NCBI GenBank assembly: GCA_037176885.1
Contig: JAWWNJ010000222.1
Span: forward strand, 62,001-126,000
Reading direction: 5' to 3'
From: Favolaschia claudopus
Taxonomy: Eukaryota > Basidiomycota > Agaricomycetes > Agaricales > Mycenaceae
DNA: 64,000 nt
Position 1 is the stretch's first letter, and each line of letters begins with the position of its first letter. The notes beneath the pieces are model-generated. The model was not told where the DNA came from, ran no database searches, and worked only from the letters and a program-made list of their open reading frames with translations. Positions 20,507-41,758 of this stretch are shown here, piece after piece. Both the position numbers and the translations under genes were made by a program.

Positions 20507-21137
20507 AGACCTGTTGGTAAACGAAATGATACACGAGGGGAAAGAGAGAGAGATTGTATTTGGTGAAGTGGTATGTATGTATGTGTAGGTATCTTGTATT
20601 CTTCGTACGAAGGCGTTCTGCCTTTGGCTGTTCTGTATTTTCAAAAGAATGTTACTGGGGTTAAGAGAATATCAAATTTGTTCGACTTCGTCTGGCTGAA
20701 GCACTGGTACCCGCCGGTCTGATTCAGAACTTGAAGCTGAGCAAACAAAGAGAACACACGGGTGCAGGTGAAGTTGATATTCGGGGGCTCGTTTCGTCCC
20801 CGAAGCTTCCGCTTGTGAAAACTCGTCAGAATGAAGCAGGACAGAAACCAGTTCACTCACCTATGAGATTCCAACGACTTTGGATGACCGTTCGATTGAT
20901 TAGAAGCACCCCTAGTTCTAGGATTTAGTCTAATGTTCTGAAGCTAGCCATAGAAAATGAAGCCTAAAGCCATGAAGCTAGCCATCCATGGCTACGTTCA
21001 TGCGCTTTAGGCTATTTTACGCACCATTTGGTTATATGATGATATTTCGGCTCTTCCCGACGTCTGTTTGTGACTTTATTCCTGTCAAACCTCGCCGTTT
21101 TGAGCCACTGTGACCCCACTGTCGTTTTCATCATCAG
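20507..21137. other. Intergenic with dispersed repeat
   Basis: No gene is recognised. It includes the 27-bp repeat core at 20950-20976, which recurs inverted near 41.7 kb, and a hairpin made of AGCCTAAAGC near 20960 and GCGCTTTAGGCT near 21002. Confidence 0.5.
20918..20977 (+). repeat. Left copy of inverted dispersed repeat flanking the island
   Basis: Positions 20950-20976 (starting ATAGAAAATGAAGCC) are identical for 27 bases to the reverse complement of 41699-41725. The preceding 32 bases are similar but diverged (CTAGGATTTAG against CTAAGATTTAG). The next 40 bases contain a partial self-complement. Confidence 0.7.
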
Positions 21138-21139
21138 TA

Positions 21140-21551
21140 CTATCCTAACCCGTGATGTGTCCTCGAAATTGATGAAGGCCCATATTGTTCCAAATTTCAC
21201 GTATTTTTCCTTCGGCATTGAAACATATATATAGCTACATGTAGTAAACATCCCTGAATATTTTGAGGATTTATGAGTCGGCGCGGCTGTGAGGATGAAC
21301 CTTCCGAGGTGGGGACACGAAGTGAACTCGATTTTGGCAGGCGTTTGGCAGGGTCACAAAATGTCACAAAAACATCCTTTTCATTTGTCTAGTCCGCTAC
21401 ATGCAAGGGATGGCTCTCAAAATCGATATACGGGCTCAGAATGTAAGAAGAATTGTCGTTGATTTTTTCTGAGCCCCAGAGAGCGAAAACGGGGTGAGGA
21501 TCAGAAAAGAGTTCACTTCACGGGTCAAGGACACATCACGGGTTAGGATAG
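21140..21551. mobile_element. MITE candidate with 24-bp perfect terminal inverted repeats, TA flanks
   Basis: CTATCCTAACCCGTGATGTG... at 21140-21163 is exactly the reverse complement of 21528-21551. Both ends are flanked by TA (21138-21139 and 21552-21553). The 412-bp body has no credible ORF, which suits a non-autonomous Tc1/mariner-like element. Confidence 0.65.
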
Positions 21552-21557
21552 TATACC

Positions 21558-21765
21558 TCCCATTTGAGCGAATAAGTCTGATGGGATGATTTTGCCGTCT
21601 GGAGCCGTCTGAAGCCATCGTTTAATCAAAAATATCATCATTTCGCCACCTATTTGAGCAAATACAACTGATCTTCACGGCAATCTATTCACCACATCAT
21701 ATCAGTTCCTATTTGAGCGACAGACAATATACCGTATACCTATTCGAGCGAATATAATTGATGAA
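21558..21765. repeat. Array of degenerate ATTTGAGCGAATA motifs
   Basis: Near-copies of CCTATTTGAGCGAATA occur around 21564, 21653, 21709 and 21741, just after the 3' side of the KDZ gene's stop. They may be subterminal transposase-binding repeats or a decayed minisatellite. Confidence 0.5.
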
Positions 21766-24700
21766 TACCATCTTCCGCCACCAGCTGTTGTGCGACCTTC
21801 ACGGCTGGCACATCCCACTTGGCACGGAAAAACTCAGCCAAGCGATCTGACCAGTCCGCCTGCTTCCTCGCATACGCCCTCAACCCGCCCGCCACCTCCG
21901 ACGTTACATCTTCCCTCCAAGCCTCACGCTCCCGCCACCACGCCGCCTGCCAGCTCAAATATCTCAAGACCCTCCTCATCTCCTCTCTCAAAAGCATTAC
22001 CTCCTCAGCCCACCGTGTCTTCCTCGCCAACGCCCTACACCATTCCACCCGTACCGCTGTCAAACGCATCAGCGACGTTGCCAAGAATTCCCATCCGCTT
22101 ACATTCATGCATCATGGATTCGTCCAGAGCGCCTGGAGCGGTCCAGATCCACGACATCACTCGCTTAGATGTGCCTGGAACGTTCCGCGGCGCACGCGCG
22201 CCCCGCCCCGACCCCAACATCGCCAGCTTCTTTCGCGCCGCAGCATCGCTCTCCCCGCCATCACCATCCAACTGAATATCCTCAGGTCGAAGAGGCCGCA
22301 ATGTTGGATATGCCTCCTCTCCCTTCAACGAGAGAAGTGCTTTGTGCCCTTGACGATACCGATTGGCGTATGATTCGATGCGTTCACCCAATTGGTTGAT
22401 CAGTGTCCGCGCTTTCGTACTTGGCACCTGCCCCACGATGTTAGCGTTTTTGAATGAGATTAGATGGCGCTTTGCGTGCAGGCGGGCCCGAAGAGCAACG
22501 AGCGAGTTCTCGCATTGCGCAACTCGCAGTTTCTCCTCCATACTCAATAAACCCGCCACACACCCCCGCTCTGTGTTGTTCCCGTCTATCAGAGGCATCT
22601 CGCTTGGCATCAAAAGCCTCACACGCTCGGCAGCCGGGGGCGGGAGGTCGCTGTCTCGATCCACCTCGAATTCCTCCAAATAACGTGCCGCGCCGGGCAT
22701 ATAGATTTTTTGTAGACCGCGAAACTTGCTTATCTTCACGAGAAGGGACTGTCGCCATTCCTGGATTTTGAGGTCTTGGTCGGCCGCAACGAGAGCCGAT
22801 CCCTTCAATTGAGAAAGAATCCGTCGCCTATCATCAATCAGTCGGGATACGTCAATGAAAACATGAGGAAGGGCGCACTGTGCATCCTCAATCTGAATCC
22901 CAGCCACCAAGAACGATGTGGCACTCCGCCCATGCAGCGGTGACTTGCCGGCCTCCGTCAGGGCCTCTTCGTCGTTCCGCACCTGAGCGCGCACAGCTCG
23001 TTCCGTGGGATAATCTGTCAACAGTTAGTGCTTCGTGTGAATCATCGGCCATCCAAACCCGTACCGTTGGTCGACACGATGTACGGATTCGGTCTGGAAT
23101 CATCCCCGAGCCAGGCCTCAATCATCTTCCGCCATTCCGTCTTCACCGAACGCTCCACCGTGCGGCTAACATCCTTGAAGGCTGCGATTTGCCTATCGCG
23201 CTCCGCAATGGCCAAGACCAGCTTCTTCTGCAATGCCTCCCCTGAATTTCTCTTCGTGAGCTCTCGCTTTCGCCCTCAAAAATCAGACTCACCTTGCCCC
23301 ACGTTTTTCAGGAAGTTGTGGCTATCAATCCTTTCCTCTATTGCATCCGCGCGTACTCCAACACCAGCATCTTTCGTCGAGAAGGCCGCGGGGTTTAAGC
23401 GCGACCAGGTGCGTTCTACCCCCTCCCCGTCCGTTCTCCCTACCCCTACTTTGAAGCTTAAACTGTTCTGGTGCTGACAATCGTCGTTGTGTGAGCTTGC
23501 GTGCCACACAGGTAGCGCATATTGCACCTCCACCTCGTCCAGAGGTAGCCGCTTGTGCTCCGGCAATTCTTTCAGCCGCTCCCGCAATGTCATCTTCCAT
23601 TGGCAGCATATATCGTATGAGATGGTGAGTAATAAGAGCGAGAAGCCTGCAAGAGCTGACATCACGATCCAGTCCATGTTCGAGTACCTATTAACCACCA
23701 GTCGTGTATTAGTATTTGTGCACAATGATAACGTTCCTCGTACCTCTCGCCCTTCTGTAAATCGCCGAGACCATTGGGTCGCATGCATTCGTGCCTCGCA
23801 CAAACACATCCACCGACTCCCGAAACCCGTAAACCCGTTGTCAAGCGTGTATCTTTCTGCAGCAAAGCCGCGAAAGCGATGCAGGTGCTCACCTACCGCT
23901 GAGTTAGGCGCTAAGAATCAACGGAGATCGACAATTTACTCACGTCCTTCTCGTTGACGTAGTTCTTCAAATGCTCTTTATACGACTTCGGCTCGACCCA
24001 GTAGCCCCAACCCGGTCCCAGCGACGGATCCTCAAGCTCGTTGGTACGGATGCGGTTCTTCAGCCGAAAGTTTGCGTCCACGGCTAGCAACAACATGTAA
24101 AGAAACCTGCACTCTTAATCAGCGACAGCGCTACCGTCGGAACCCTCGGACGAAAACGTACTGATACTTGGGCTCAACCTCCCGCCAACCCTCGGGCAGG
24201 TTATGACCGTCGTGTGGACAAGCCCAACATCTAACGGCGCACTCTCCCAACGCAGTCGCACCTATACCCGCTTTGTCGTGCCCCCGTCCTGCCCGCAACA
24301 GCCGCCACAAAAACGCCCATTGTCGACCCATACGGCCGAATTGCTTATATCGGTCCTACGCGTCGTCAGCGTTGCTCGGCTAAACCTTTGACAGACCTAC
24401 CGGAAGCCACGTCATTCCCGACGCGGCGGTCGCGTCCGTCATCCTCTCGAGTGCTGTCACGAAATCGTGTACATTGATGTTCCCCACCACGCTATACAGC
24501 CGAAAAGCCTCCAAAGTCCTGAACGTCGCGCAAGTCCCAGGGTCGGTGACCGTCGCTGGATACCAAGCATTCCGCAATAATTGCTCCAGGTTGTCGGCAC
24601 AGTCCGACCTGGAGCACTTACAGAACGTCACCCGAATCTGATGAATCACCGGTGCGTCGATGACCACCATTTTCCGTTCGATGTCGGGGAACGGACATGG

Positions 24701-25424
24701 GAAGCCGCCGTGCCCCAGTTGATATACCAAACCAATGTCCGCCAAGGTGCGAACCTCCCAAAATCGGCCGTTCCATTCCTGCAAGAACCCGCGTCAATCG
24801 CCTCGTCTCCCAAAGCAATCAGGAAGACAGACCTTCAAGACGTGTAACGGCGTTCTGTGGTGATGAGTAACGCAGCATGACTCGCATTGGAGAAACTGCC
24901 CGCAATCGCTGCATTTGAAAAGTCGGGTATGCTCGGCAGCGCCGCACAGAGCACACCGAGGCGCATGCACGTCGTCACCGAGCCCTTCATGGCGTAGCAG
25001 CTCAGCGAGAAAATCACCCATCATAGGGCGCCACTGCGACATTGGGTCTCTCTTCAAATCGTAGTCAGCGGCGGGCAGGAAAAAGGGTAGGGAATAAACG
25101 CACCGAGCTGACATACTCCTTTCGTTTACCCGCGATTCTCTCCGCATCCTCCCGCCCCTCCACTCCCACCGCAAGCGCCTCTTCCTCCGTGAACCCGTCG
25201 TCAGGTACGGGAATCCACTCAGCCAGCTGATCGTCGAGTTTACTCGGGTCAAGGCGGCGTTTCTTGTGAGAGACATTAAGCATCTCTTCCTGCCGGTTCC
25301 CATTGGACAGTATGTATATTCCTCTATCCCCAGTTACAGACAGGTGGTCGACGTTGCTGGCTTCTTCGATGTCGCCAAGATTCAAAGCGGAAAGCGCGGG
25401 ACGACCTCGACGATTCTGGCTCAT
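21740..25424 (-). CDS. KDZ-family transposase with N-terminal CxC2 domain
   Basis: Ten exons, complement(21740..22056, 22103..23014, 23065..23241, 23293..23687, 23744..23892, 23944..24106, 24162..24355, 24401..24778, 24833..25051, 25104..25424), 1074 residues and fully open. After an acidic N-terminus comes the CxC2-type zinc cluster (CALCG, KCSDCGQFLQCESCC, then PLHVLK). The Kyakuja-Dileera-Zisupton core follows, with DANFRL, YDICCQW, a His/Cys-rich HASSHNDDCQ region and GEGVERTWSRLNP, which carry the predicted DDE acid residues. The C-terminal 330 residues are helical and charged (RVEWCRALARKTRWAEEV). These proteins mobilise large fungal DNA transposons; the absence of stops suggests recent activity. 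It faces away from the other island genes. Confidence 0.92.
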
Positions 25425-25540
25425 AGCCGCGAGCGGGAGAGGTACAGGGGAGACTCAGAAGAGCGAAAACCATCGGACTCGGCTTATATGTTGACGGTAA
25501 GAATCACACTGTAGTAATCAAGCAGAGAAATTGTGTTTGA

Positions 25541-25575
25541 GACGCTGCTCGCCACCTTGAGCGGCGAGCAGCGTC
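25541..25575. promoter_or_regulatory. Perfect 13-bp hairpin upstream of the KDZ gene
   Basis: GACGCTGCTCGCC (25541-25553) and GGCGAGCAGCGTC (25563-25575) are perfect inverted repeats around a 9-base loop, about 120 bp before the KDZ start codon. Role unknown; a protein-binding palindrome or internal transposon repeat is possible. Confidence 0.5.
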
Positions 25576-25730
25576 GGGTGGTGTGGTAAAAGAGATGCGG
25601 TGCAGCGGCCCGGAACGGCACGGATCAACGGTTCGTCATTAACCGGTTTTCTACTCTAAGTATACGACCTCTACGATTTTTTATCTATCCTCGCTTGCTG
25701 GCTATCGAACTATCGTCTACTGAGGCGCAG

Positions 25731-26310
25731 CTAGGGAGTCGCCGGCACCAAAACTTTCGGCTCCGAAGGAAATCTCAATCCGTCCCAGCGATACCTCACG
25801 ACACTCTCGTCGACCCAATCAGGATAAGCATCCGCCAGCCAAGCCTCCTCCACGACTAAACGCTCTGGAGCGCGGTACATGATCTTCCGACAATCGGGAC
25901 ACGACCATTCCTCCTCCAACCACAGCCTAATACAAACATAGCAATGGCTATGTCCGCAAGCGTAGCTATCAAAAATGGGTCAGCATCTTCAAGTATAAGC
26001 AAGAAAATCAAACGACTGACGAAACTGGGTGCGACTTGACCATGCGACAGATACCGCACATATGGTGAGCTCTGCGCGGGTACTGGTCTCTGGGAGCTAT
26101 TCCGTCGACCCACAGATCGGCATCTTGAAGGGGCTGGTCTCTCTCCTCGCGATAACCGAATAGGGACACAGCAAGAGGAATCCGGCTCTCCAAAAGGACG
26201 AACGGTAGGCGGCGTTGTTGACGAGCCTCCGTGCGACGAGCTTGACTTTCGACAGCGCTATGAGGGCGAGAAACGATTTCATTCGCTGCGAACGCGTCAA
26301 TATGCTGAAT
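25731..26310 (-). CDS. RING-finger protein (putative E3 ligase), N-terminus unresolved
   Basis: Two exons are clear, complement(25731..25965, 26021..26310). They join to give a RING/C3HC4-like finger: CGIC, then CGHSHCYVCIRLW, then CPDC, with an upstream basic stretch (SQARRTEARQQRR) and a C-terminal tail rich in Trp and Pro (YPDWVDES, RYRWDGLRFPSEP). RING proteins usually recruit E2 enzymes for ubiquitin transfer. A start codon was not fixed: 26330-26460 encodes a related segment (ANGTAAHPHRALDSDARR against ANEIVSRPHSAVESQARR), so an exon seems to have been duplicated. The gene lies 300 bp from KDZ, on the same strand, and small RING proteins of this form recur near such elements, which suggests a passenger gene. 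Confidence 0.7.
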
Positions 26311-26825
26311 CTTTCAAACGGCGAACAACAGCAGACTTACCCGGCAGCAGGGGACCGCGGCGAGCGTCACTGTCGAGTGCGCGGTGAGGGTGAGCAGCAG
26401 TTCCATTCGCTACGAAACCACCAAATCAATACGCTGATTCTTTCAAACCGCGAACAAGAACAAACCAGGAAGGAGGGGATTCGACATGGCGGGCGAAGGA
26501 GGCAGATTCTCCTTCGCACTTCGCAAGATACGAGTGGAGGTGGCCAGCGCGACGGAAAGAGAGGTGGGGGGGGATTTTTTGAATCCAAAGGCAAGGCATA
26601 GTCTTTATTTAAATGGGAGGTGATCCCCACATAATGCGACTCACCCGTTTCCATATTCATGCCGAGATCTGAGATGTCTATGCCGCCAACCGACCCTCTT
26701 GTTTTTTTCTGGTTTACGAAACGACGGGAACGCAATCTTCAGTCTGAAAATGGCACAATTTCCGGAAGCACTACAACCGAATGCTAATCGACACACAACA
26801 ATAGCCCCCTCATTGGCTCCTCGTC

Positions 26826-27206
26826 TCACATAGCTTCACCGCGGCGACGCATTTTTGCGGCCTCTGAACGAATAACCCGGCGAATCGGGCGCTGTTTGAG
26901 AGGGCGGGACTTGGGATCGACCGGCCGCCTGGCCGCCATCTCTCGGTACTGCCGCGCCGCCTCATCAATTCTCTCGCGTCTACGGCGCGCGCACATGGCG
27001 CGACGGTGCTCCTCCCGGTGCCTATCCGTAATCTCGCTGATTCTAAGCACCTCGGGCTCCGGCAGAACGGGCTCAAGGCTCGTCAATGTTTTAGCCAAGA
27101 GCGCGTGAATGTCCTCTCGAGAGGTCGGCTGTACTAGAACAAAATAATCTTATTCTCAGCCCAAAAAATACAGAGAGGCGAACACACCGTTTTCAACCCT
27201 GCTCAT
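26826..27206 (-). CDS. Small basic coiled-coil protein, 108 aa
   Basis: Exons complement(26826..27133, 27188..27206) joined by a 54-bp intron inside a Val codon. The first exon codes only MSRVEN. The product is Arg/Glu-rich (HREEHRRAMCARRRRERIDE) and probably one long helix, ending in a basic tail (SRPLKQRPIRRVIR). No domain is recognised; the charge pattern resembles nucleic-acid-binding or nuclear accessory proteins encoded near KDZ elements. It has the same orientation as the RING and KDZ genes. Confidence 0.6.
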
Positions 27207-28653
27207 TTTTTTGGCTGCAATGCGTTAAGATTCGATGCAAAAGGCAAGTCCTGGGTGCCTCATTAGGTCAGATCAGCGATCATTTAAAGCGGTAGAAACC
27301 GAGAAGATCACAATGGTATCACCATTCCGTTTCCGATATCACAACAACGTGAATGCCTTCTACAGCCGTAAGGATTCGCGTACGGCAACTCTTTCGCTTA
27401 ACGGCCTGGTGCGCAGTGGCCGCCTGCGACCCTCTAGCTTTTCCCCCCACCTATCACACCTCCTCGTCTCGGGCCTCTATCGTCAAGAACCAATACTTCC
27501 TACTCAAATGCTCCCGCGGAAGCATATTCCAGACATCTGCGTCCGTTCCATCAGGCATACCAAGCCTTCTCACGTCACGGAAAACGAAGACCGCCCCAGT
27601 CTTCGACTTCTTTCCCGAAACCCCCGCGAATTTGTAAACTCCTCGCCGTCTCTAGGTGAGTTGCTGACATGAGACTTTCAAATTAACGGCGGAATTGAAA
27701 CTGACGTGCGAGGCGCAGTCAGTTCCCGCGCCTAATTTTCTTGCACGCGTGCGGTGAGTTTCGCTTCTGAGTCTCGCTTGTGAACCATCCCCGCTCAGGC
27801 CGCTGGGCCCTGACTTCGGTTGATTCCGTCGTTTTCGCACTCAAAGGTCGTATATTTGCAATATGTAGAGATTAAAGTGCATGTATGTATGTAGGAAATC
27901 CATGGCTTCACATTTTGGCGCGTCTGCACCAGTCCTTGAGTTACCCCGGTCAACTGAGGCATTACAAACAGTGTACTCACAGTAACGAGAGATCTTTTGC
28001 ATCCACGCGGCTCAGATATTCCCCCCGGAACTTATCCGTGCGCAGGACGTAATGGGCGCCGCTGGTATTTCGACTCTCGAGAAGCAAATCTTGACGCTTG
28101 CCGTGAAAGCCGCCGAAGACGACGAACACCTTGGAATTCCTACCGAAAGATCAGACGCTATCTGCGGAAGTCAGATGTTTACAGCACTCACCTGCAAATG
28201 GCAGAATATTGGTGTGCCGAAAGCACTTTGGAGAGCGGCCACTGGCCATCGTCATCCGCGATCAGCTCCGGCAAGTCCTCTTCCGATTCAGAGTACCCCT
28301 CGCAGCTCATTGTCTCGATACTTGCTGTCTTGGCTCCAAAAAAATGAATGAAGGCGAACGAGCACCCAAAAGACGGCGGCAATAATTCCTTCAATTTATC
28401 AGCAACCAATAAAGGCCGGTCGCACGTCGGGAACACAAAAGCAGTTACCCCGTTGAGACGACCGACCCGTCGCAGTCGTGTCACTGGTCTAGACGGACCG
28501 ACGGGTGGAGTTTTGAAGTAAACAGGGAGCAAACAAGATCTCAGATTCAAGATCTGTCGAGACCAACCTCAAGAAAGAGGCCCCCCATTTTCCCGACCCC
28601 ATAGATTGCCCCTCTACACACTCCCCGCTCTCAACGTCAAGCCCACTTCTTCT
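27207..28653. other. Unresolved coding-like stretch between divergent island genes
   Basis: Protein-like frames occur on the minus strand at 28188-28480 (for example RPLLVADKLKELLPPSFG and an acidic segment) and 27975-28127 (VFVVFGGFHGKRQDLLLES), but the best splice between them (donor after 28190, acceptor near 28128) does not keep the second frame. A plus-strand frame at 28052-28351 is also protein-like. No ATG supports either cleanly. It may be a decayed gene. Confidence 0.35.
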
Positions 28654-30441
28654 ATGCCGCTTCTGCTCCGCAACCCCCGCGCGTCTTCTGGCGGCGCTTT
28701 CCTCCGCACGCGCCCCGGCGACCCGATTCACAGCAAACACCCTTACCGCTTCACCGACGCCTTGGCCTACGAAAACTTCCTGATTATGGACCGTGAAGAC
28801 CATAGCATTGCATATCGCGGTCAGGTAAGGCAATTCCTAAATTGTCTGTCGAGAAATGAGCATTAATTGGTGTTGTACAGCAACACTCACTGGCCCAGTG
28901 CACAGAGGCGACGTGCTACGTCCATTTTTACCCCGGCGGCGACTGTGAGCCTGCTCCCGTCAGCCCCGTGAACTCTCGACCTGCATCCCCCGCCTCCACG
29001 GATCTGTTTGAGCATGAAGACCCGCCTGCCGACGACGACGACCTACCTACGCTCGGTGTGTCTGACTTTGCCGATAACAACGCACCCGCCGGCGGCGGCC
29101 GCGCCCTCAGCCCCACCATCTCTGAGCTTGACGCTGCTCGCGCTTTGGATCCGCGCCAGCCAACCGCCATCGCCGCGGCCTATTGTGCTTGGCGAACCGA
29201 TCTGGCTCACGAGCGGTGGGACCGCTATTTTGCTTCGAGAAAAACCCTGCAACTGGAAGAGCTGGGCCGCGTCCTCATGCGACGCAGACGTAAGTACGCG
29301 AAAAAACAGGTGAAGAACGGCGTAGAGCCCCGCAAGTCGCGTCGTCAACGCCAAGGGCGGCGCGACGATTTGTCGGAATGGGGTGCGCTCCGTGCCGATA
29401 TATTCATTCACGCGGGGTTTTGGCCTCATGACGTCCCTGCTAACGGGTAAGCAGACCACCACCTTTGAGATTCCCTTCGCGCTTACATTTTCTTTTGTGT
29501 TGTGTCAGCGGCCCGCGTCCTATGGTGGATCTCGAAGGCTTCGTTACGGGACTTGTCGCTCCCGGACCACCCGACCATCCTAACTGGGCCCTCGTGCATG
29601 GCAAGGCCGACGCCATCCTCCGGCGCTTTCTCCGCAATGGTGAATTTTTGCCCATCGGTGAATCCCGCGCCCGGTATGGCCTGACGTGCGGCCATCCTCA
29701 CAAAGTTAGTTGTTTCCTCACCTCCGTGATCTCGCACTTACAAAGCTATCACCACCAGCAACCTGAGAACATCCCTCTTGCGGGCGTCGTTGCCTCAGAG
29801 ATTGCACACATCCTTGAAAGCCCCGTTTTTCGTGAGCTCGCCGCCTACCAGACTCGTAAGTCCCATCTTCTGCTACGAACGCCGTAAAAGTGACATTACC
29901 TTTAGACCTTTTGCAGCAGTTCTTCCCCAACTGCTTCACTATCTCGATGCGCCAAATCGCTGAATTGCGGCGTCTCTGCCCCGACCTCAGCACGCCGTTC
30001 CCCGACTCCCCATTCACCACCGGGGAGATCAACTTCGGCGACGTCCCCTTGACCACCCGCAAAAACCTCAGCGCAGTCTTCTTTCTTATTGAGGCGATCA
30101 CGCCCGTCGGCAAGTACGACGACTTGAAAGGAGGACAGCTTGTCTGCCCCCACGACGACAGCCTGACTCGATTCGGTCCCGGGATGACGGCGCTTATCCC
30201 GACGGGCACCCAAGAGTATGTGCTGGCCGCTGTGGGGAAAGACGAGCACCGTTTCCTCTTCCGGCAGTTTTTCTGCGCGCGCGTGTTTCGGTGGGTGGAG
30301 AAGGGCGGCAGGGACGACGCGGAGTTTGATAAGGTCGCATCGCAGGAAGAGCGGGAGGCTTGGGAGGAGAAGCGGGTGGGACGCACTGAGCAAAGCATCA
30401 ACTACTTCAGCAAACTCCGTGTCCTCAACTCCCTTGGATGA
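28654..30441 (+). CDS. TET/JBP-like double-stranded beta-helix protein, apparently without iron ligands
   Basis: Exons 28654-28824, 28881-29446, 29509-29855 and 29906-30441, 539 residues, no stops. The first 130 residues are Pro/Asp-rich; then a basic region (RRRRKYAKKQVKNG, RKSRRQRQGRRDD), a helical middle, and from about residue 380 a segment ordered as in fungal TET/JBP-type 2-oxoglutarate/iron oxygenases: INFGDVPL, a hydrophobic strand, KGGQL, FGPGMTALIPTG, then HRFLFRQFFCARVFRWVEKGG. Active members oxidise 5-methylcytosine. Here the usual H-x-D after the NFG segment is absent (a shortened TTRKN is seen) and the distal His after the LIP strand is missing (TQEYVLAA). I infer a catalytically dead or altered binder. 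Fungal TET/JBP genes are known to be linked to KDZ transposons, as here. Confidence 0.65.
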
Positions 30442-31361: not shown

Positions 31362-32015
31362 TATGATGTGGGTTGGCGGTGGTGGGGGATGGCGTGACGT
31401 GGCACCAAACATTACCATGCAAAGGCTCGCCGCGGCGAGACAACAGGTTGCGAGCGGCAAAACCACGGCAAGTGACGCGATCGACCGCTGCGAACTGACG
31501 ATCGTGTTAAAGGTGAGTTTTTCGCGTTGATTTGAGATTATGACGCGACGAGAGCGTGCCATTGAATTATTTCTTTGAGAATACTCAAACCAGAACTTCA
31601 TCCCTCCTATCCGACGCGTCAATTGAGGGGCTTTTTCTTCATGACACGTTGGAGGCCGAAAGGTGGTCCAAGGGGAAGTAGGGTTTTATGAAGAAGGCTC
31701 CAAACTGCATTTTCGGTGAGTTCGCTTTCACCAAAAATTATATTTATTTCACAAAATATGGTGTGACCCATTGTTTTGCACAAAACTTGAAAGCATTGAA
31801 AGTGTTGTGAATGGGAGTGGCTTTGCTACATGGCTGGCCAAAAAAGCGAAGGTCGGGCATCTCGGAGGGAGGCGGGGACGAGCTGACTTCGCTCAAGGAC
31901 ACCTCAGACTAGTGAAAATTTAATGGTGTTTTTATGGCTCAGGACGGGGGAAAGAAAAGGTTGTCATAGGGCACACAGGTACATCTGAAAAATGAGAACT
32001 ATAGCTAAATACGAG
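31362..32015. other. Intergenic, no gene supported
   Basis: AT-richer stretch with short ORFs only. It holds the upstream region of the basic protein gene and the 3' flank of the RNase H1N gene, both on the minus strand. Confidence 0.5.
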
Positions 32016-33033: not shown

Positions 33034-33578
33034 GATGGGGGGAAGGAAGTGGGGGGAAGAAAGTGAGAAGGGTCTTGGCGTGAGGTTGGTTTTGTACGGA
33101 ACGGCGGAAGCATCGGATAAAATTTTGATCATTGACCGAAATAACTACGTGGAGAGTGAGAAGCAGAGGTCAATAACAAAATTGGAGTGCTCGCACCTGA
33201 TGAAGGAGTGACTGCCAATCCGATTGGAAGGAGCGCGAGGGCAGGGAAGCTGAATATTGCACTGTGAATACAAAACGGGGGTACGCGTATGATAAAGTCC
33301 ACCTGACAGCTCCATATCCTTATCCAAATCGGTGTGTGGGAGATCTTTGAAGGGATCGGGAGGGATCTGGTAACGAGATCTGGCGTTAGTTTTTGTTTTG
33401 ATCCGACATTCACTTTTTCACATCTTCACGTAGTATCCAAAAGAGGCAAGTAGAGATTCAAATGGCAAGTACTACGCGACGGCAACAAAAATACACGATG
33501 TACGGCTACGCGAAACAAGAAATGCTAAGGGTTGACCGTGAGGACAGTAATACACAGAAGGAGCGGGAGACTCACCCT

Positions 33579-34238
33579 TTAAGGGATAACGGCGACCGTC
33601 CCGATGTTCAGGCAATCATTGAAGGCCTGGAGAGCAGCCACCTGGGTCTTGAACTTCTGCATGTGCCCCCCCGACACACCCACGACGGCGGCGAGCGCAA
33701 GACCGTTGCTGCGGGTGATGCCGACATAGTGGCCCTTGGTGATCGCGTACCAGTTGGGGCGATCATCGAGATCCGTGTACTGGGGCTCGGGGATAGCCTG
33801 AAGATGCTGCGGGGGGACGACGATGTAGAGGTAGTCGACCTGCCAAGGTCCTTGAGTGCGGAGGGCGACCGGCGCCGCCACGGGAACAGCCGGAGTGACG
33901 GGAACGGCGGCGGCGGCGGCGGGCGGAGCGGCGGGAACGGGCAAGGGAGCGGGAACGGGCTGGGCAACGGCGGCGGGGGAAGAGTCGGCAGCCTGCGAGG
34001 CAGGCTGAGATCCTAGACGGGGATCAGAGAGGTACGAGAACGAGAGAATGTGGGGGTCACCTCCATGCAAAGTCACCATCGCGCTCAGCATATTGGCCAA
34101 CGTCGCTATGGCGTCGGCTGAATGAGTACATTAGAAGGGGTATAGAGCAAGTATGGATCGCTCACCCGTGTTGGAGGCTTGAGTGGCCCCTGGAACAGAG
34201 TTGGCTGTGCCAGGAGCGTTGGGGTCGAAAGAGGTCAT
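33579..34238 (-). CDS. RNase H1 N-terminal-like domain protein, Ala/Pro-rich
   Basis: Exons complement(33579..34117, 34166..34238), 203 residues. The start MTSFDPNAPGTANSV is followed by a helical ADAIATLANMLSAMV stretch, a low-complexity Ala/Pro/Val region of about 50 residues, and a C-terminal domain ending NWYAITKGHYVGITRSN, then GVSGGHMQKFKTQVAALQAF, which has the WY-x-V...G...F-x-T-x-x-A-x-x-A order of RNase H1 N-terminal domains. It probably binds nucleic acid. The pairing with the gene at 32016-33033 suggests a tandem duplication within the island followed by divergence. Confidence 0.65.
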
Positions 34239-35836
34239 TGTGGTAGAAGAGAAAGTGTTGAGGGCGATCAGTTGGGGATCAGAGGACTTTATATGTTTGC
34301 GATTCGAACTCCGACTGCCGTTGATGGAACCTATACGCGGACGAATCGTGAGGGGGACAGATCCCAAACAAATCACAAAATAAACATACACAGCAGACTT
34401 GTGCCGTCTTCCACGTCAGAAAAATATTCCTCGCAAGTAACAGAACGTCTATTATCGGGTGAGCCTCTCGCTTCCATGGCTAAGAGCTGTCCACTGACCA
34501 ATTATCAAGCAGAGATGGCGAAGATGCCCAAAACCAGAGTCAAGCGGAGTCGTGCGAAAGTGGCGAAGGAAAACAAGAAAAATTTGCGTTTGTGGGCTGA
34601 GGGAGCACGGGAATTGGTGCTGAAGCCTCACATCGAGGGATACCAGAAGGCTATGGATAAGGGATGGCGATACGAGAGGAAGTATTGGAAGAAAGTTTGT
34701 CGAGAATTTCACGCTAGAATTCACTGGAGAACGCAAGACCACGAGGAACCGGTAGTACGGGTATGGGATGAAAACCAGGCGATTGAAGACGAGGAGGTCT
34801 CCCCAGAAGACGAGGTGGAGAGGTCGACGAGAGTCGACGAGCTCAATCGGGTAAGTCACACCGTGACTTGTCACTCTCTTCATGCTCATGCTTCAGCCAG
34901 CGAATTCGGCGCTGGTTCGTCTACCGCGTTCGTAAGCTGCGTAAACACCAGCGCACGACTGGTCTCGACCCTCTGAAAGACCCTTTCGCCATTCTACTCG
35001 CCAAACTCTCTGGGCTGACGGCACCACCAAAAGCGCGACAAGCGTATCAGCAGTTTATGCGAGAAGACTTCACCGAGAAGATAGCTCCCGTGGTCGCTGA
35101 AGAATGGGCGAAGCAGCTGGCTAGTGCTGCCGATAGTGGAACTGTAGGTGGAGAGGGTGGGACGAAGGAGCCGAAAGGTGGCTTCCGGGCTGCGATAGCG
35201 CGCAAGCTCTTCGCGGCACTTCCGTCTGCCGAACGCGACGGCTACGCAGCGCGTGCGAAGGAAAGGCGGGCGGAGGGGTAAAACAGCCGAGGCAGCACCG
35301 TCGCGGAGGTCCTCGCGCCATGGGCGCGGTGCCGGTGAGGAAATGCAGGTCGATCCTCCCCCAGACAATCAGGAGAAAGACGGTGGGGGTGGCGCTGGCG
35401 CAGAGGGTCGCGGAAGTGCCGGGTCGGGAGAAGAGGGGGCTAGCGGGGGTGGGGTAGATGGTGAAGGCGATGGTGTCGGTAGCTCGGGAGCGCCGCCTCC
35501 CTCTCAGGCCGCTCAGCAGGCGATTGGTCGTGAAAGAGTCATGCCGCCGCCGTCTCGCATGCCTGCTCCGACCGCATTCGTCGCGTGCCCGCCTAACGCT
35601 GCGAAGTGGTTCTCCGATGCGTATGCCCTGATGACTGCGGACGACCTGGGCTGTCACTATAATGCGCTCATCGCGGCGTGGACGCGAATGGAGGCAGCGT
35701 CGCGCTTTGAGAAAGGACCCACGAATCTTCCGCACAGACTTCGCCCGCAGCAGGTCTCGACGTGGATAACTCGCGGGCGCCGCGACGCGCCACCGGTGGT
35801 AGAAAAACCGGCGGAGTATGCTGTGATATGGATGAG

Positions 35837-38800
35837 TAGTGTTTTTCCGGCCTTGGCTTGGCCTGAAAGCCGGGGCTTTGGCCCGCTTTGAGGTGGCTTT
35901 GGCTTCCTCAAACCCCAGGCCGGGCCAAACCCCACGGCTTTGGCTTGGCCCGGCCCGGCTTTGGCTTAAGCCACGGCTTGGATACATATTTTTGAGCGAA
36001 TTATTGAATAGATTTACTCTACATTTACATCGGGTTCTTCGTTGTCAGGAGAATCATCCAAAAAGCAATCCCACCCTTCCTCGCGCTCCGATGTAGCATC
36101 ACCATTCTCGTCTTCGGCAAGGGAGGGTGCACCACGATACATATCCTTTGATTTAATGAGGGACTTGAGAATTTGAAGCGCCTCGACGATGTCCCCTTTA
36201 AGTCGGTTGCGGCGTTTGCTAATCGTGATGCCGCCGGCGGAAAAGGCGCGCTCACTGGACACCGAAGACGCCGGAATGGCAAGCCGGTCTCGCGCCAGCG
36301 AGCGCCATGTTGGAAGGCGACCGACACATGCCTAAAGAAGATGAGATGGTGTCAAGTGAAGTTTCAGAATAAGTACGCACACCCCACCAGGCAACCATAG
36401 AAATATTCTCAGGAATCACTTCAGGGCGTGAGGTATAGTATTCCTCGAATTCGTCCAGCCACGGGCGCTGTGGATCACGATGGGGCTCGGATGTTGTTGG
36501 TTCGTCATCGTCACTTTCGGGGGTGAGCTCCCTAAGCAGTGTGCCAAACTTAGAGGAGGGTTGTGGACGGGCAAGCTGTGATGTGGAAGTATTATTTAAA
36601 TTCAGTTCGCGCCAACGTTGCGCAAACTGAGGAGAGAATCTGATTCAATTCATCGCCTACAAATATTCAAAGCTTCACTCACAATAGTCTCTGCAGTATC
36701 TCGCGCCTCCTTCGCAAGTTCAGCTCCCCAGTGCTTGTCGAAGTAGCGACCTTTTTGGGAAGGGTCCAACACTTGCATCAAGAATTAGCTACGATGCGAA
36801 CAAAAGAGGAATAAAGAAAACGAACCCATAGCCATAACTTGAGCGGTGGATTTGGCCGACTTCTCATAGTATTCATTTATCTTATCAGCGGCTTTCTCAA
36901 GTGCATCAGCGTAGAATATATTGTCAGGTTTCTTTGCGCGCTTGCTCCAGGCACTATGGAGCGCTTCGAGAGCAGGGATAGCGTTGTGCAACGATGGGAT
37001 GGTCCCGGAAGAAAAGGCTTGTTGGGCTTTCTCAGCATGCTAGCACGAAAGTGAGAGCAGGAATATAAAACAGAGAAAGACTCAACGGCCAAGAAACCCG
37101 TGAACTTGTTCACTCGAGTCCATTCCTCTGCAGTCAGTTTAAGATTGCGAATCTTAGCGCGTTCCTCGAGACTTGAGCCGTCGAACGCAATGTCGTGAAC
37201 AAAAAGATCGACAAACTTCAGAGTATCAGTGACAAGGATATAAACAAGGGAAATGGATCACCTCTCGCAACTCGTAGGCGCGCAACAACATATGATAGGT
37301 GGAGCTCCACCGCACCTTCATGTCCAGGATGAGATGCTTTCCGAGACTAACGCGTACCTCGACACCATCAGTGCGCGCCGAAGCTTGAACCTGGAGGCCC
37401 TTGAATATTTCACGCCGTTTGGCCGACGAACGCTCCTGGCATTCATGAGATTGAATTGACTATAAATATAAGGGCATTATTTTGCTTACCTTGACCGCGA
37501 TGGCGCGAACAAGTCCGATTTCGTCTCGAAATAGAGCATCAGTGTCCGGTACATGGTTCTCAGGGTTCTTAGGATCGAAATGGGGAGCTTTACTGTATGC
37601 CGCAATCAATGCTTGGGTCGCAAGGTTGATTATATGCGCCATACAGCTAGCAGAAAATTAAGTCAGCGAGCAGTTGATGCGGAATAAATTAAAACATACG
37701 GCAAATGACGCTCCACTGGATCCCAAACCACTTGGTCGCGCTCGAGGAGCTGCTTGGCAAACTCGATAGCAGCGGTACCGTTATTGGCTGCGCCGTCCGT
37801 CGTCATGTAGCCAATCTATATAAACAGTGAGAAGAATTCACGACGTAATGATAAAACAAACCCGTTTCTGTATTCCCAGTCTTGCTACGATCTTGTACAG
37901 TGCTTGACCCAAACGAACACCGTTGTGGGCGTTGTTGAGACGTGTGAATCCAATCAGCGCCTCGCGCGACTCCCAGATCCCCGGGGAAACCTCCTCAATC
38001 CAATGTCCGGTGACGGCCAGGTATCCATCCCCGTTATCTGCCTGCCATGCATCGTCGGTGATGTGTATTTCACCCGATACAGTGGGACCCTGAAAACCGA
38101 TGAGAACAGCAAAAAAAACACCTCAAGATTCAAAACTACATACATTCAACTTCTTCCGTAAGTTATCCATTCGCTCTTGGAACAAGTTGATGATTCCCTT
38201 TCGCGTTGCCTTTTTCTTGGGCAAACGAACACCGTTCTTGGCGCGGGCCGCGATGTCGATCATATTAACGAATTTCGGATTTTCGAGGGCGTCAATAGGC
38301 TAAGAAAGAATCAGAGATGGCAAGGGTGAATGAAATACGAGTAGGTTACGGACCTGATCTGTAGCAACGAGCCATTCGATTGCCGCCTCTCGGAAGAGCG
38401 CATCGGAGTAGGGGATTATCACCTCCTGCTCGGGTTTCTCGCGGAGGTGCTGGTCGAGTGTTGGCTGAGTATCTTTGGCCTCTGCTTCCTTCTTTGCCCT
38501 ACGATCGGATGGTAGCGCTGATTCGAAATCGTTTTTCTTCGCCCATCGATGGTACGCTGCCTACAGACAACACAATTATTATAATTCCAAAATCGAAAGG
38601 TAGAAAACTCACATAATGCTCGGCTTCTAAGTGTCGGCGCAGGGTGGTTGCTTCGGCGACGATACTCTTCTTACCACTGTCGAAGGACGCAATTAATAGA
38701 ATAGATTTCACATAGATGGAGAATAACGTACCCATGGCATGCCTTACAGATACGACGGGACTGAACCTTGCCGCCCGGTTTGCTCATGTGGTAGATGTCG

Positions 38801-40183
38801 TCGAAGAAATGCTTAATATCTTTGATTGCGTCTGTCTTCTTCTTTTGGTTGCCATTCAGCGAAGTAACCTCGACGTCGGCTAGAAAACCGTCTTTGTCGA
38901 CTGCAGTAGGATCCCCGGACGACTTGGTGCGGGAAGTCGCTGTTACTTTGACTCAGCAAGATTTTCGAAACAAAATAGTTGGACTCTAACGCACATGCAG
39001 CATTATCTCCTTCTTCAGTGCCAGCTGGCACGTCGGGTGCTGTGACTGGAGGAGGGTCTGAACGAGGACCTGGATGCGATGAGAAGAAATTTAAGTATGA
39101 GGAACAGAAACCTACGTTTTCTCGATGGGCCGTCTGAATTAACAGATTTGCGCCGCTTTTGTCCAGTCGCTAGCGGAAAGATCAGGCGAAATATTATAGT
39201 ATTGACGCCCGAAATGGAGAACTCACAAGCGTCGTTCACGGTTTCAGCATCGGAGTCGTCGATATCGATGACATCGTTCGGGTTTTGTTCGCTGTCTGCC
39301 TCGCAAACACATCAGTCGTTATCTTTGACTGCATTGCAAAACAAACGAACCACTCTGCAAGCCAGATGCCTCCGGACCATCTCCAGTGGAAGGTGCAACT
39401 TGACCGCCATTGTCTGCGTCTGCAGGTGAAGGATTTCCGCCCGCCCTCTGGGTTCGGCGCCGAGCGCGCTGCCCATCAAGCACAAGAGTTGGATCGGGAA
39501 GGTCTCGAGCGCCACCCATGAAGAGATGTATTGAAGGTAGACTCACCGGTACTTAATTCTTCTCATATATGCCCTATGCCTCCACTTCAATCACCGCTAT
39601 TCACGTCCGGGTCGTACGATCGACTTGAAAGAAAAAACCGACGCATCACGGAAAGCTCTCAATTGAAGCACCCAAACCCGATGAACCGGAACACAGCAGA
39701 CCCCCAAAGCATGGAGATTTGCACGGTAATTATTCAGAACAACGACGGGCTCAGCGCCCGAGCACTTTTGACTGCGGCAAGGTGATGGTGCGGGGTCGGC
39801 GCGGTATTCATTGCCCGAGAATAATCACATTTCTTCGATGTATCCACTTGAAATTGCGACATTGAGGGACATTAGAGGCCAATAGGACGCGTAATACGCG
39901 TGACAGTGGTTGTTGGCGAGCGTCGAGTGAGAGGGTAAGGTCATCGTCAAGAACAGACCGTGTAATAGTTACGGAATGGGTCGGGCGGAACTCGGCCCGT
40001 GAGGTAAATCATTGCCAAAAATAGACGAAAAAGCCAGGGCTTTTTGGCTTGGCTTTGGCTTGCGAGATCGACGAGCCGGGCCAAAAGCCGTCAAAAGCCA
40101 AAAGTTTGGCTTGGCTTTGGCTTTGGTACCAAAGCCAAAAAGCCAGGGCTTTTTGGCCTGAGGCCAAAGCCGGAGAAACACTA
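35837..40183. mobile_element. Complete hAT transposon, 4347 bp
   Basis: The ends are TAGTGTTTTTCCGGCCTTGG and the reverse complement of CCGGAGAAACACTA, a terminal inverted repeat of about 14-20 bases with few mismatches. The flanks are a perfect 8-bp target duplication, TGGATGAG (35829-35836 and 40184-40191), the hallmark of hAT elements. The body carries a minus-strand transposase gene with BED finger and hATC dimerisation domain. Subterminal regions at both ends are packed with GGCTTTGGC and its complement, likely transposase binding sites. Confidence 0.95.
36014..39519 (-). CDS. hAT-family transposase
   Basis: Many short exons on the minus strand. In order: an acidic N-terminus with ADSE/DSEQNPNDVIDIDDSD; a BED zinc finger with Cys pair in RRICKACHG and LRRHLEAEHY; an RNase H-like core with NGVRLGQALYKIVARLG, IGYMTTDGAANNG (catalytic Asp region) and AHIINLATQAL; a helical insertion (PALEALHSAWSKRAKKPDN); VLDPSQKGRYFDKHW; and a C-terminal hATC dimerisation motif, SSERAFSAGGITISKRRNRL. 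All hallmark segments are open, so the element may be autonomous. The first exon is uncertain: ATG at 39519 gives MGGARDLPDPTL, but a first exon near 39560 is possible. Confidence 0.88.
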
Positions 40184-40708
40184 TGGATGAGCTGGTGGGA
40201 TTCGCTGCAGCCAGCGTGGAGGGAGAAGGACGGTGATGGTCGTTGGTCCGTCGTGAAGGGATACGGTGCGGGAGGACGAGAGTGGGGCCCGTTGTATCAT
40301 TGGGGCGTGAATGGGGTGCTGAGTCTAGTGGCGTCGCTGTATTGCTGGGGACGGGCGGTTCAGGCGGACACCGAGTTGCGGGCGGCGTGGGAATTGGCGG
40401 TTTGTGATGCTGTTTGGGTGTTTGAGGGTATGGCCGTTTACTACGAGATGTTCAAGGGCAAGTTTTAGGCATGGTCTCCGATTTCTGTTTTGCGTCGCTT
40501 TTAGATTCTTCGTTTACTGTCTTTGTTTGGCGAACATTTCGTACTATACTGTAGCTCTATAGGGATGGTACTAAGCTACATGAATACTCTACAGGCGTTC
40601 AATAGATACTGGCTCTTTTTTGGTGTAACGGGAGGAGGCAAACGGGACAAACGCGAGCTGTGGCAGTGCTAGCTGCCGTACATATGAGGGCCAAAGAAAA
40701 TAAAAAAA

Positions 40709-40793
40709 CGTCCTGCGCGAGTCGAACCTCGGACGTCCACACAGCGCACCACATTACAGTAGGCAACACACTACCTTTCGTTCACCTAGGATT
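40709..40793 (-). tRNA. tRNA-like sequence, probably degenerate
   Basis: On the minus strand GAGGTTCGACTCGCGCAGGACG has a T-loop (GGTTCGACTC, B-box form) and a 3' acceptor-like end, directly followed by a run of seven T, as in Pol III terminators. A possible 5' half (ATCCTAGG, then an A-box-like segment) pairs only partly with the 3' acceptor strand, and the anticodon arm (CCTAC..TGTAAT..GTGG) is imperfect. It may be a decayed tRNA, a tRNA-derived SINE head, or an intron-containing tRNA. Confidence 0.35.
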
Positions 40794-41698
40794 TTAGAAC
40801 CTGTCATATCTAGTTCGCCAGTATCGGTAAAAGGTAAGCCCAAATTTTGAGTCCCGAGGCACTGAATAAAATACTGCGTATATCAGGCAGCCAGAAGGCC
40901 TCGTCGCGTTGCGTTGGCATCGTCTCACGTTTTCCAAGGTATTTTATAGTGCATGTGGCGAATCTACCGGCTTTTCTGAAACCAAATATTGGCCATTTGA
41001 ATACACCGGCCGCTAGACCGTGTCAACTATACACGCGCAAGCTTCACGTTTCTGTCGAAATCATGGAGCACCGCGAAGCGCAGCGCATTGATAAACATTT
41101 CTAAACCATTCTTGGGCCTAAGCATAATCTACATTGTAATTTTATGAGGAGAAAAATGAAAGCGGCAGGTGGAAGGCATCTCGGGCCCCCTCGGCACTAT
41201 TTTGGCTTTCAGTAAACACACGTCACAACAATGCGAGGATTCGCGCTTTCTGTAGAGAGAAATGGGTATTAGGGTCCAGAGTATCTTTTGGACATACCCT
41301 CCAATGCTTCGGGCACATTCCGAACGGATACAGGTGGATTGCACGGATCGGAATATGTCCGGTCCAGCTCGGAAAATGCCGAGGTAAAGACCTAATCCGG
41401 AACGGGTGAAGACGGGATTGATTCCCGGAATGAGCGGAACCGGATGGAATTGACAGTCCGAAAAGGGTTGAGTGACGGTTCACCTTTCAGAGATGCATAC
41501 CACTTATTGATGAAGAACAGGTTGATGCGATATTGATGATATTGATGAGGTTGATGAGGAGGTTCCAATCAAAAAGAAAATAGACCGATGCATCAAAAGA
41601 TAAATACGCCAGTGATGCCAACGAGCAGCAAATACTGCCCAAACAGCCTAAATAAGCATTATATGGGTTCCATGGAACTAGACAACCGGTTGTGTAAG

Positions 41699-41758
41699 TT
41701 CATGGCTTTAGGCTTCATTTTCTATGTCTACATTCATGCGCTTTAGGCTAAATCTTAG
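41699..41758 (-). repeat. Right copy of inverted dispersed repeat flanking the island
   Basis: The reverse complement of 41699-41725 is identical over 27 bases to 20950-20976; the remaining 33 bases are partly conserved. It is the opposite orientation of the left copy, 20.8 kb away. Confidence 0.7.

What the first reader, a model, noticed from the sequence alone, without database searches (positions are those of the whole stretch)
20918..41758. 20.8-kb island with KDZ transposase, TET/JBP-like and recurring partner genes between inverted repeat copies
Between two inverted copies of a repeat (27 identical bases) lie an intact KDZ transposase, a small RING protein, small basic proteins, a TET/JBP-like protein, two genes with RNase H1 N-terminal domains and an HMG-like gene. 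Known: fungal TET/JBP genes are often linked to KDZ transposons. Inference: the whole stretch may be one composite mobile unit, or a nest of KDZ passengers, that carries its own DNA-modification, ubiquitin and nucleic-acid-binding accessory set.
Basis: partly seen in the sequence, partly recalled or inferred. Interest (0 to 1): 0.88.

Follow-up and report, generated by a model that had tools for sequence, protein, structure and literature searches.

The report
Giant multi-gene KDZ transposon in mushroom
The whole 20.9-kb block is one large jumping gene of a mushroom fungus that carries a conserved set of about eight genes, among them a dioxygenase look-alike that has lost its metal-binding site, so a piece of genome that looks like a gene cluster is in fact a single travelling unit.

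Summary
Window 20907-41769 is one mobile element of the KDZ superfamily in Favolaschia claudopus (species from protein-record names). A near-identical copy with unrelated flanks lies on contig C96, diverged full-length copies on C12 and C41. All four have 7-bp target duplications; three of three tested insertions have clean empty sites. Eight genes keep order and orientation in C12 and C41, with dN/dS below 1. Genome-wide, 38 of 38 island-type 'TET-like' loci have the RING gene upstream and/or the HMG-like gene downstream, against 1 of 31 other relatives (hit lists capped). Corrections: the window copy carries a MITE, a hAT transposon and a 1,212-bp deletion. Its 'TET/JBP-like' protein lacks all three iron ligands; the complete triad is absent from 17 of 17 sampled island-type proteins and present in 9 of 9 sampled sisters, so it is probably a conserved pseudo-dioxygenase. 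'HMG' has no Pfam support. Giant KDZ elements with accessory genes are known; this is a new variant.

The parts
20907..41769 (.). Complete KDZ-superfamily element (20,863 bp here, with later insertions and one deletion; 17,309 bp in the C96 copy)
   Evidence: Alignment with C96:278280-295588, flanks unrelated; termini CACCC..GGCTC; empty sites C155 and C269
20900..20906 (.). Left target-site duplication TTAGAAG
41770..41776 (.). Right target-site duplication TTAGAAG
20907..20995 (+). Left terminus: imperfect terminal/subterminal inverted repeat with internal palindrome (inner limit approximate)
41690..41769 (-). Right terminus, inverted relative to the left (inner limit approximate)
21140..21551 (.). 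Nested MITE-like insertion (about 29-bp TIRs, TA duplication), absent from the C96 copy
21740..25424 (-). KDZ transposase gene, 10 predicted exons, 1068 aa
   Evidence: dN/dS 0.11 and 0.05
25731..26313 (-). RING-finger gene (exon model uncertain)
   Evidence: dN/dS 0.09 and 0.11
26827..27206 (-). Small basic protein gene, about 108 aa
   Evidence: dN/dS 0.21 and 0.24
27910..28312 (-). Possible small acidic gene, about 97 aa (limits approximate; weakly conserved, 26 codons compared with C12 only)
28654..30441 (+). Dioxygenase-like ('TET/JBP-like') gene, 4 predicted exons, 539 aa, iron ligands lost
   Evidence: dN/dS 0.33 and 0.51
30665..31340 (-). Gene for a basic protein of unknown function, about 190 aa
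   Evidence: also in the C126 family
32016..33033 (-). Gene with RNase H1 N-terminal domain (PF01693 over cut-off)
   Evidence: also in the C126 family
33579..34238 (-). Second gene with RNase H1 N-terminal-like domain (below cut-off)
34476..40468 (+). 'HMG-like' gene; open in C96, C12 and C41 (874, 844, 882 aa), here broken by a 1,212-bp deletion near 35260 and by the hAT
   Evidence: no HMG match in Pfam
35837..40183 (-). Nested hAT transposon, TIR TAGTGTTTYTCCGGC, TSD TGGATGAG (35829-35836 and 40184-40191), transposase on - strand
   Evidence: (Dimer_Tnp_hAT E 9.6e-14); absent from C96

Best explanation
The stretch is a single cut-and-paste DNA transposon of the KDZ superfamily, about 17.3 kb when undamaged, with a fixed gene array: KDZ transposase (-), RING protein (-), small basic protein (-), dioxygenase-like protein (+), basic protein of unknown function (-), two RNase H1-N type proteins (-) and a large HMG-like protein (+). 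Shown: the ends, the 7-bp duplications, insertion of the whole array as one unit, conservation of the array in diverged copies, and purifying selection on the genes. Inferred: the KDZ transposase binds the palindromic subterminal repeats and inserts both ends with a 7-bp stagger; the HMG-like and basic proteins help to hold or bend DNA so that ends 17 kb apart can meet; the RNase H1-N proteins bind hybrids or double-stranded RNA from the element; the RING protein is a ubiquitin ligase acting on the transposase or on silencing factors; the dioxygenase-like protein no longer oxidises DNA and works as a binding (reader or decoy) subunit. The window copy is, by its near-identity to the C96 copy, a recent insertion, later hit by a MITE and a hAT, and its HMG-like gene is broken.
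For: Second copy with different flanks, differing by 4 substitutions and 5 one-base indels over the aligned 13.7-kb block. TSDs TTAGAAG, TTAAGTT, AGAGTTC, TATCCCG at 4 of 4 full-length copies. Empty sites: C155 and C269 for the window copy, C5 and C48 for the C96 copy, C4 for the C12 copy, 3 of 3 insertions tested. Collinear genes in C12 and C41 and, as far as read, in the far more diverged C126 copy: KDZ-RING-TET-like-unknown-RNase H1-N. dN/dS below 1 for each of the eight genes in both comparisons. 34 of 38 island-type TET-like loci have the RING gene 1-10 kb upstream on the opposite strand and 33 of 38 the HMG-like gene 2-12 kb downstream on the same strand, none has neither; chance expectation is 0.06 for RING on 38 loci and 0.13 for HMG on all 69 loci. 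Complete triad in 0 of 17 island-type proteins sampled (15 lack all three ligands, 2 keep only the first His) and in 9 of 9 of the sister clade; split supported 100/100.
Against: The functions of all accessory genes are inferred; no expression or biochemical data were seen. dS is near saturation in several comparisons and some genes rest on few codons (26 to 92), so the ratios are rough. C41 has one extra base between the element end and its right TSD. The KDZ search of the whole genome did not complete, so KDZ beside these partner genes was seen at 8 places only. The Pfam search of the genome for RNase H1-N did not list the element's own copies on C222 and C96. The AlphaFold model was unusable (pLDDT 40), so the dioxygenase fold rests on alignment to relatives.
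Confidence: 0.88

Rival explanations
1. A nest: several independent mobile elements or captured genes have piled up between chance copies of a short repeat.
For: A MITE and a hAT really are nested inside; short copies of the terminal repeat without the genes exist.
Against: The same array, end to end and in the same order, sits at four sites with different TSDs, and empty sites lack the whole array.
Confidence: 0.03
2. Segmental duplication or recombination between haplotypes, not transposition, made the C96 copy.
For: The two copies are nearly identical.
Against: Similarity ends at the termini (3 bp beyond on the right, where both duplications begin TTA), each copy has its own 7-bp duplication, and each site has an unoccupied homologue.
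Confidence: 0.02
3. The dioxygenase-like protein is an active TET/JBP enzyme that removes methylation from the element, as proposed for TET-bearing fungal transposons (Kojima 2025).
For: Linked to a KDZ transposase; under purifying selection; the distal Arg of the fold is kept in 12 of 17 island-type proteins; of three sister proteins scanned, one has a sub-threshold Tet_JBP match (16.3 bits, E 0.0058; cut-off 34.9) and two a sub-threshold 2OG-FeII_Oxy_3 match (E 5.5e-5 and 0.0074), the third neither.
Against: No complete iron triad in 17 of 17 sampled island-type proteins.
Confidence: 0.1
4. The protein is not a dioxygenase relative at all; the similarity to the HxD..H sister clade is only local.
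For: No Pfam match and only chance-level PDB matches for the island-type proteins; no TET structure found even with the intact sister proteins; unusable AlphaFold model.
Against: The genome search with the island protein finds the nine sampled sister loci at E 5.8e-17 to 7.3e-12, and the alignment runs along the C-terminal 180 residues or so without long gaps.
Confidence: 0.1
5. The accessory genes serve the host (domesticated) rather than the element.
For: Purifying selection alone does not say for whom.
Against: The genes travel with the ends and the transposase, and recur in one fixed order at dozens of loci.
Confidence: 0.07

Closest known systems
TET-bearing Kyakuja elements of the KDZ superfamily in Agaricomycetes (Kojima 2025, PMC12730594; abstract, introduction, sections 3.2 and 3.4, part 1 of 2 of the discussion, and the figure-legend section read; tables, figures and supplements not seen)
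   Same: KDZ transposase, 7-bp target-site duplications, 5' CA terminus, a dioxygenase-like partner gene
   Different: 3' end is TC, not TG; imperfect inverted terminal repeats where the paper reports none; the partner protein lacks the iron ligands; six further conserved genes, which the parts read do not mention for Kyakuja
KDZ-TET/JBP elements of Iyer et al. 2014 (PNAS; not held; recalled: its abstract says that several elements encode additional proteins, including a divergent HMG domain)
   Same: KDZ, TET/JBP-type gene, an HMG-like partner
   Different: Here the element ends, empty sites and a fixed array with RING and RNase H1-N genes are shown; HMG identity of the large gene is not confirmed by Pfam. 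What the body of that paper lists is not known to me
Giant KDZ elements of algae (up to 30.3 kb in Ectocarpus, 31.7 kb in Chlamydomonas; PMC12477816, passages read)
   Same: Very large KDZ transposons with extra genes and nested insertions
   Different: Different hosts; the accessory gene contents were not compared
CcTET-like AG-type TET/JBP dioxygenases (described in Kojima 2025)
   Same: Possibly the same broad fold family
   Different: HxD..H triad absent; no Tet_JBP match, whereas 38 other places of this genome match Tet_JBP, 22 over the cut-off

Membership tests
KDZ superfamily DNA transposon | KDZ transposase domain | tested here: met
   PF18758 E 1.8e-57, 195 vs cut-off 26.6 bits; CxC2 PF18803 E 4.5e-32
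KDZ superfamily DNA transposon | Inserts as a unit with target-site duplications | tested here: met
   4 of 4 full-length copies with 7-bp TSDs; 3 of 3 tested have empty sites
Kyakuja group | 7-bp target-site duplication | tested here: met
   TTAGAAG, TTAAGTT, AGAGTTC, TATCCCG
Kyakuja group | Termini 5'-CA..TG-3' | tested here: not met
   5' CA is present; the 3' end is TC in the window, C96 and C12 copies, TC or TCC in C41
Kyakuja group | No terminal inverted repeats | tested here: not met
   Imperfect inverted repeats over roughly the first 70-80 bp
Kyakuja group | Transposase falls in the Kyakuja clade of the KDZ tree | not tested
   No reference set of Kyakuja, Dileera and Zisupton transposases was built
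TET/JBP dioxygenase | HxD..H iron-binding triad | tested here: not met
   RKN..Y in the window; complete triad in 0 of 17 island-type proteins and 9 of 9 sister proteins
TET/JBP dioxygenase | Tet_JBP profile match | tested here: not met
   No Tet_JBP match at E up to 1 for the whole protein, nor at E up to 10 for its last-exon frame and three relatives
TET/JBP dioxygenase | Double-stranded beta-helix fold | tested here: inconclusive
   AlphaFold model of a relative (P0003) with pLDDT 40
HMG-domain protein | HMG profile match | tested here: not met
   No HMG match in the first 242 residues of the window model or in the full C41 model
RING protein | C3HC4 zinc finger | tested here: met
   zf-C3HC4_2 27.5 vs cut-off 27 bits with the window model; the poorer C12 model is below cut-off
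RNase H1 N-terminal domain proteins | PF01693 match over cut-off | tested here: met
   First gene 29.1 (window) and 30.9 (C41) vs 21 bits; second gene 16.0 bits, below cut-off
hAT transposon (nested) | hAT dimerisation domain, 8-bp TSD, TIRs | tested here: met
   Dimer_Tnp_hAT E 9.6e-14; TIRs; TSD TGGATGAG and absence in C96

The most novel reading that the evidence does not exclude
A multi-gene transposon lineage has turned a TET/JBP-type dioxygenase into a non-catalytic subunit of its own: a pseudo-dioxygenase that reads or masks DNA marks, kept by selection and carried with a RING ligase, RNase H1-N proteins and an HMG-like protein in a fixed array through dozens of loci of one genome, so that the element does not erase silencing marks but binds them or blocks their recognition.
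Probability: 0.35. Interest if true: 0.8.

Novelty: new variant of a known kind. Interest (0 to 1): 0.62.

Why it matters
It gives a KDZ element with exact ends, empty sites and signs of recent movement, so that transposition can be tested with a natural element. It shows that genes which look like a cluster or an 'island' are the selected cargo of one transposon. It also sets up a sharp test of what TET-type genes do for fungal transposons: in the element-borne clade sampled here the catalytic site is gone while the gene is kept, which argues against DNA demethylation being its only use.

Tried and rejected
Nested-passenger, segmental-duplication and active-TET readings are treated as rivals. 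AlphaFold on one relative with five family members gave pLDDT 40 and was not used for a fold search. PDB searches with the island protein, the island-type alignment and the intact-type alignment gave only chance-level matches. Three searches of the 5.8-billion-protein collection found the TET-like protein only in F. claudopus (3, 5 and 1 proteins, the last being the query itself); the first two scored only the 8,000 or so candidates sharing most words, the third had 102 candidates, so absence elsewhere is not shown. Gene models come from a simple home-made splice finder. In its window run the models of the RING, small basic and unknown (30.7-31.3 kb) genes were wrong or over-extended; the RING model stayed poor in the C96, C12 and C41 copies; the hAT transposase model runs past the hAT end. 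In one search only the downstream same-strand arrangement (0 of 38) is a true extra control for RING; the other printed figures repeat arrangements already counted. In one search the three other arrangements of HMG to TET-like gave 0, 2 and 0 of 69. One locus, C36:347019, scores among the island-type loci but was put with the other relatives because its triad is intact; left in place, the count would be 38 of 39 against 1 of 30. The KDZ query against the whole genome did not complete, so no genome-wide KDZ count exists. Literature: full-text searches; none of the titles and abstract beginnings listed describes this array, but Iyer et al. 2014 was not held and supplements and figures were out of reach. 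The Cryptococcus KDZ papers were seen in the listings only.


Full report
WHAT WAS CLAIMED. A 20.8-kb stretch (20918-41758) between inverted copies of a repeat, holding a KDZ transposase and partner genes, and possibly one composite mobile unit.

THE SEQUENCE. The inverted copies are real: 28 identical bases at 20949-20976 and 41699-41726, with none in 100 shuffles. The window is part of a 264.6-Mb assembly in 460 contigs (G000; window = C222:62001-126000). Proteins of the family carry the name Favolaschia claudopus, and one of their contigs has exactly the length of contig C12. A genome paper for that species reports 265 Mb and 86.8% duplicated BUSCO genes (PMC10905254, part 1 of 2 of its text read), so the assembly probably holds both haplotypes.

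ONE MOBILE UNIT. Aligning the window to contig C96 shows near-identity from window 20907 to 41772 and no other alignment over 80 bp (E 1e-10) in the more than 20 kb of flank compared on each side. The two copies begin CACCC and end GGCTC; the window copy is flanked by TTAGAAG on both sides, the C96 copy by TTAAGTT; the alignment runs 3 bp past the right end because both duplications begin TTA. Over the aligned 13.7-kb block the copies differ by 4 substitutions and 5 single-base indels; the other three shared blocks are 100% identical. Two more full-length copies are C12:853536-873371 (TSD AGAGTTC) and C41:233280-250731 (TSD TATCCCG, with one extra base at the right end). Joining the two flanks of the window copy gives a sequence that matches C155 and C269 in one piece at 84% and 81%, each with a single target copy (one of them with one changed base). 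The same test works for the C96 copy (C5, C48) and the C12 copy (C4). So 3 of 3 tested insertions have clean empty sites; the C41 flanks were not tested.

DAMAGE AND NESTING. Relative to C96 the window copy has a 412-bp MITE-like insertion with a TA duplication (21140-21551), a hAT transposon (35837-40183, TSD TGGATGAG) and lacks 1,212 bp near 35260. The deletion and the hAT both fall in the HMG-like gene, for which open models of 874, 844 and 882 aa are found in the C96, C12 and C41 copies. The C12 copy has its own insertion of about 2.4 kb.

GENE CONTENT AND ORDER. tblastx and tblastn of C96 against C12 and C41 find the same eight genes in the same order and orientation: KDZ (-), RING (-), basic (-), TET-like (+), unknown (-), RNase H1-N 1 (-), RNase H1-N 2 (-), HMG-like (+). 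A ninth, small gene is weakly conserved and was seen against C12 only. Nei-Gojobori dN/dS (C12; C41): KDZ 0.11; 0.05, RING 0.09; 0.11, basic 0.21; 0.24, TET-like 0.33; 0.51, unknown 0.36; 0.36, RNase H1-N 1 0.24; 0.20, RNase H1-N 2 0.36; 0.56, HMG-like 0.29; 0.18, and the small gene 0.31 with C12 on 26 codons. Codons with a stop on either side were skipped (0 to 6 per comparison), dS is near saturation in several (up to 2.6), and some genes rest on few codons (unknown gene against C41: 38), so the ratios are rough. Left end plus KDZ plus TET-like also occur in this order at C63, C104 and C88. Of the 17 matches to the left terminus, seven are left ends of KDZ-bearing copies, two are right ends of the window and C96 copies, and eight lie at seven other places where none of seven query proteins (all but the HMG-like and the small gene) was found in the 10-20 kb read. 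Two of these places, C119 and C11, hold a short derivative with both ends about 25 bp apart.

GENOME-WIDE PATTERN. The TET-like protein matches 87 stretches (80 of 273 candidates scored), which I reduced by hand to 69 loci. HMG-like matches (195, list cut in the output) were reduced to 100 loci, RNase H1-N Pfam matches (104) to 67 (the element's own copies on C222 and C96 are not among them), RING matches (168, list cut) to 97. All counts are therefore lower bounds. 33 of 69 TET-like loci have an HMG-like gene 2-12 kb downstream on the same strand (expected 0.13; 36 of 69 within 30 kb), with 0, 2 and 0 in the three other arrangements; 49 of 100 HMG-like loci have an RNase H1-N gene 0.5-8 kb upstream on the opposite strand (expected 0.1), with 0 in other arrangements. 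Split by score, the 38 island-type TET-like loci have RING upstream on the opposite strand in 34, HMG-like downstream in 33, both in 29 and neither in 0; the 31 other loci have RING in 1 and HMG-like in 0. The split was made after seeing the lists, and one locus (C36:347019) was moved to the other group because its triad is intact; alleles are counted apart. A far diverged locus (C126, TET-like 33% identical) reads KDZ-RING-TET-like-unknown-RNase H1-N in the same order and orientation, with an HMG-like match about 7.5 kb from the TET-like exon; a second diverged locus, C12:976-981 kb, has RING and TET-like in the same arrangement in the 5.5 kb read. The 46 HMG-like loci with RNase H1-N but no TET-like gene (49 with RNase H1-N, 3 of them with both) point to sister families.

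THE 'TET/JBP-LIKE' PROTEIN. It has no Pfam match and only chance-level PDB matches. Aligning its C-terminal domain with five database relatives and 20 genome loci picked shows two clades, split 100/100: nine proteins with HxD..H, and 17, the window's among them, none of which has the full triad; 15 of the 17 lack all three ligands and two keep the first His only. The distal Arg is kept in 12 of the 17. Of three intact-clade proteins scanned, two have sub-threshold matches to 2OG-FeII_Oxy_3 (E 5.5e-5 and 0.0074), one of these also to Tet_JBP (E 0.0058), and the third has neither. I therefore read the island protein as a pseudo-dioxygenase related to the 2OG oxygenases of TET/JBP type; the fold itself is not shown. 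Tet_JBP matches occur at 38 other places of the genome, 22 over the cut-off; one of them (C122) has a KDZ-type cysteine-cluster frame about 0.8 kb away (label by eye), which is the known KDZ-TET pairing.

MECHANISM. Shown: insertion of the array as a unit, 7-bp target duplications, selection on the genes. Inferred from domains: cut-and-paste by the KDZ transposase acting on the palindromic subterminal repeats; architectural help by HMG-like and basic proteins; hybrid or dsRNA binding by the RNase H1-N proteins; ubiquitin ligation by RING; DNA or mark binding without oxidation by the pseudo-dioxygenase.

COMPARISON WITH THE KNOWN. KDZ-TET association and accessory genes in fungal KDZ elements are known (Kojima 2025, PMC12730594, parts read; Iyer et al. 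2014 recalled, not read; PMC12477816 passages, which also give KDZ elements of 30.3 and 31.7 kb in algae). Marasmius oreades KDZ terminal repeats are said to be described in a supplement that I could not see (PMC8290104 passages). By Kojima's criteria the element meets the 7-bp TSD of Kyakuja but not the TG 3' end or the lack of TIRs, and its transposase was not placed in a tree, so I call it a KDZ element, Kyakuja-like by its TSD. New here, as far as the searches show: the fixed RING/TET-like/RNase H1-N/HMG-like array with complete ends and empty sites, and the loss of the iron triad in the array-borne clade.

VERDICT. A real, complete KDZ transposon of giant size with signs of recent movement and a selected gene array: a new variant of a known kind. 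The surprising part is the conserved pseudo-dioxygenase.

Noticed in passing
window 18020-19832 and 53931-55768: Two inverted, 73-88% similar stretches about 34 kb apart, which look by eye like paralogous alpha-amylase genes; the element sits between them.
   Followed up: no
window 2-870 and 3912-4789: Long imperfect inverted repeat (arms up to 305 nt, 84-98% complementary) around about 3 kb at the window start.
   Followed up: no
window 6475-7182: Element of about 0.7 kb with 44-nt, 98% complementary ends, probably another non-autonomous DNA transposon.
   Followed up: no
window 8146-8261: Short tandem array of a 16-bp unit.
   Followed up: no
C119:205856-206055 and C11:2431141-2431340 (in L023 and L024): About 200-bp derivative carrying both element ends only about 25 bp apart, probably a MITE of this family.
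   Followed up: partly
C12:863049-865405 (L017/L029): Insertion of about 2.36 kb in the C12 copy with similar inverted ends and no frame over 102 aa; C96 lacks it.
   Followed up: partly
46 HMG-like loci: HMG-like gene paired with an opposite-strand RNase H1-N gene but without a TET-like gene nearby: probably sister element families with another cargo.
   Followed up: no
C122:349139-349543 (L035): Tet_JBP domain with HxD..H beside a KDZ-type cysteine-cluster frame, the known KDZ-TET pairing.
   Followed up: partly
C22, C12 and C4 matches: The flank of the C12 copy belongs to a gene or repeat family with 16 further matches on contigs C22, C12 and C4.
   Followed up: no
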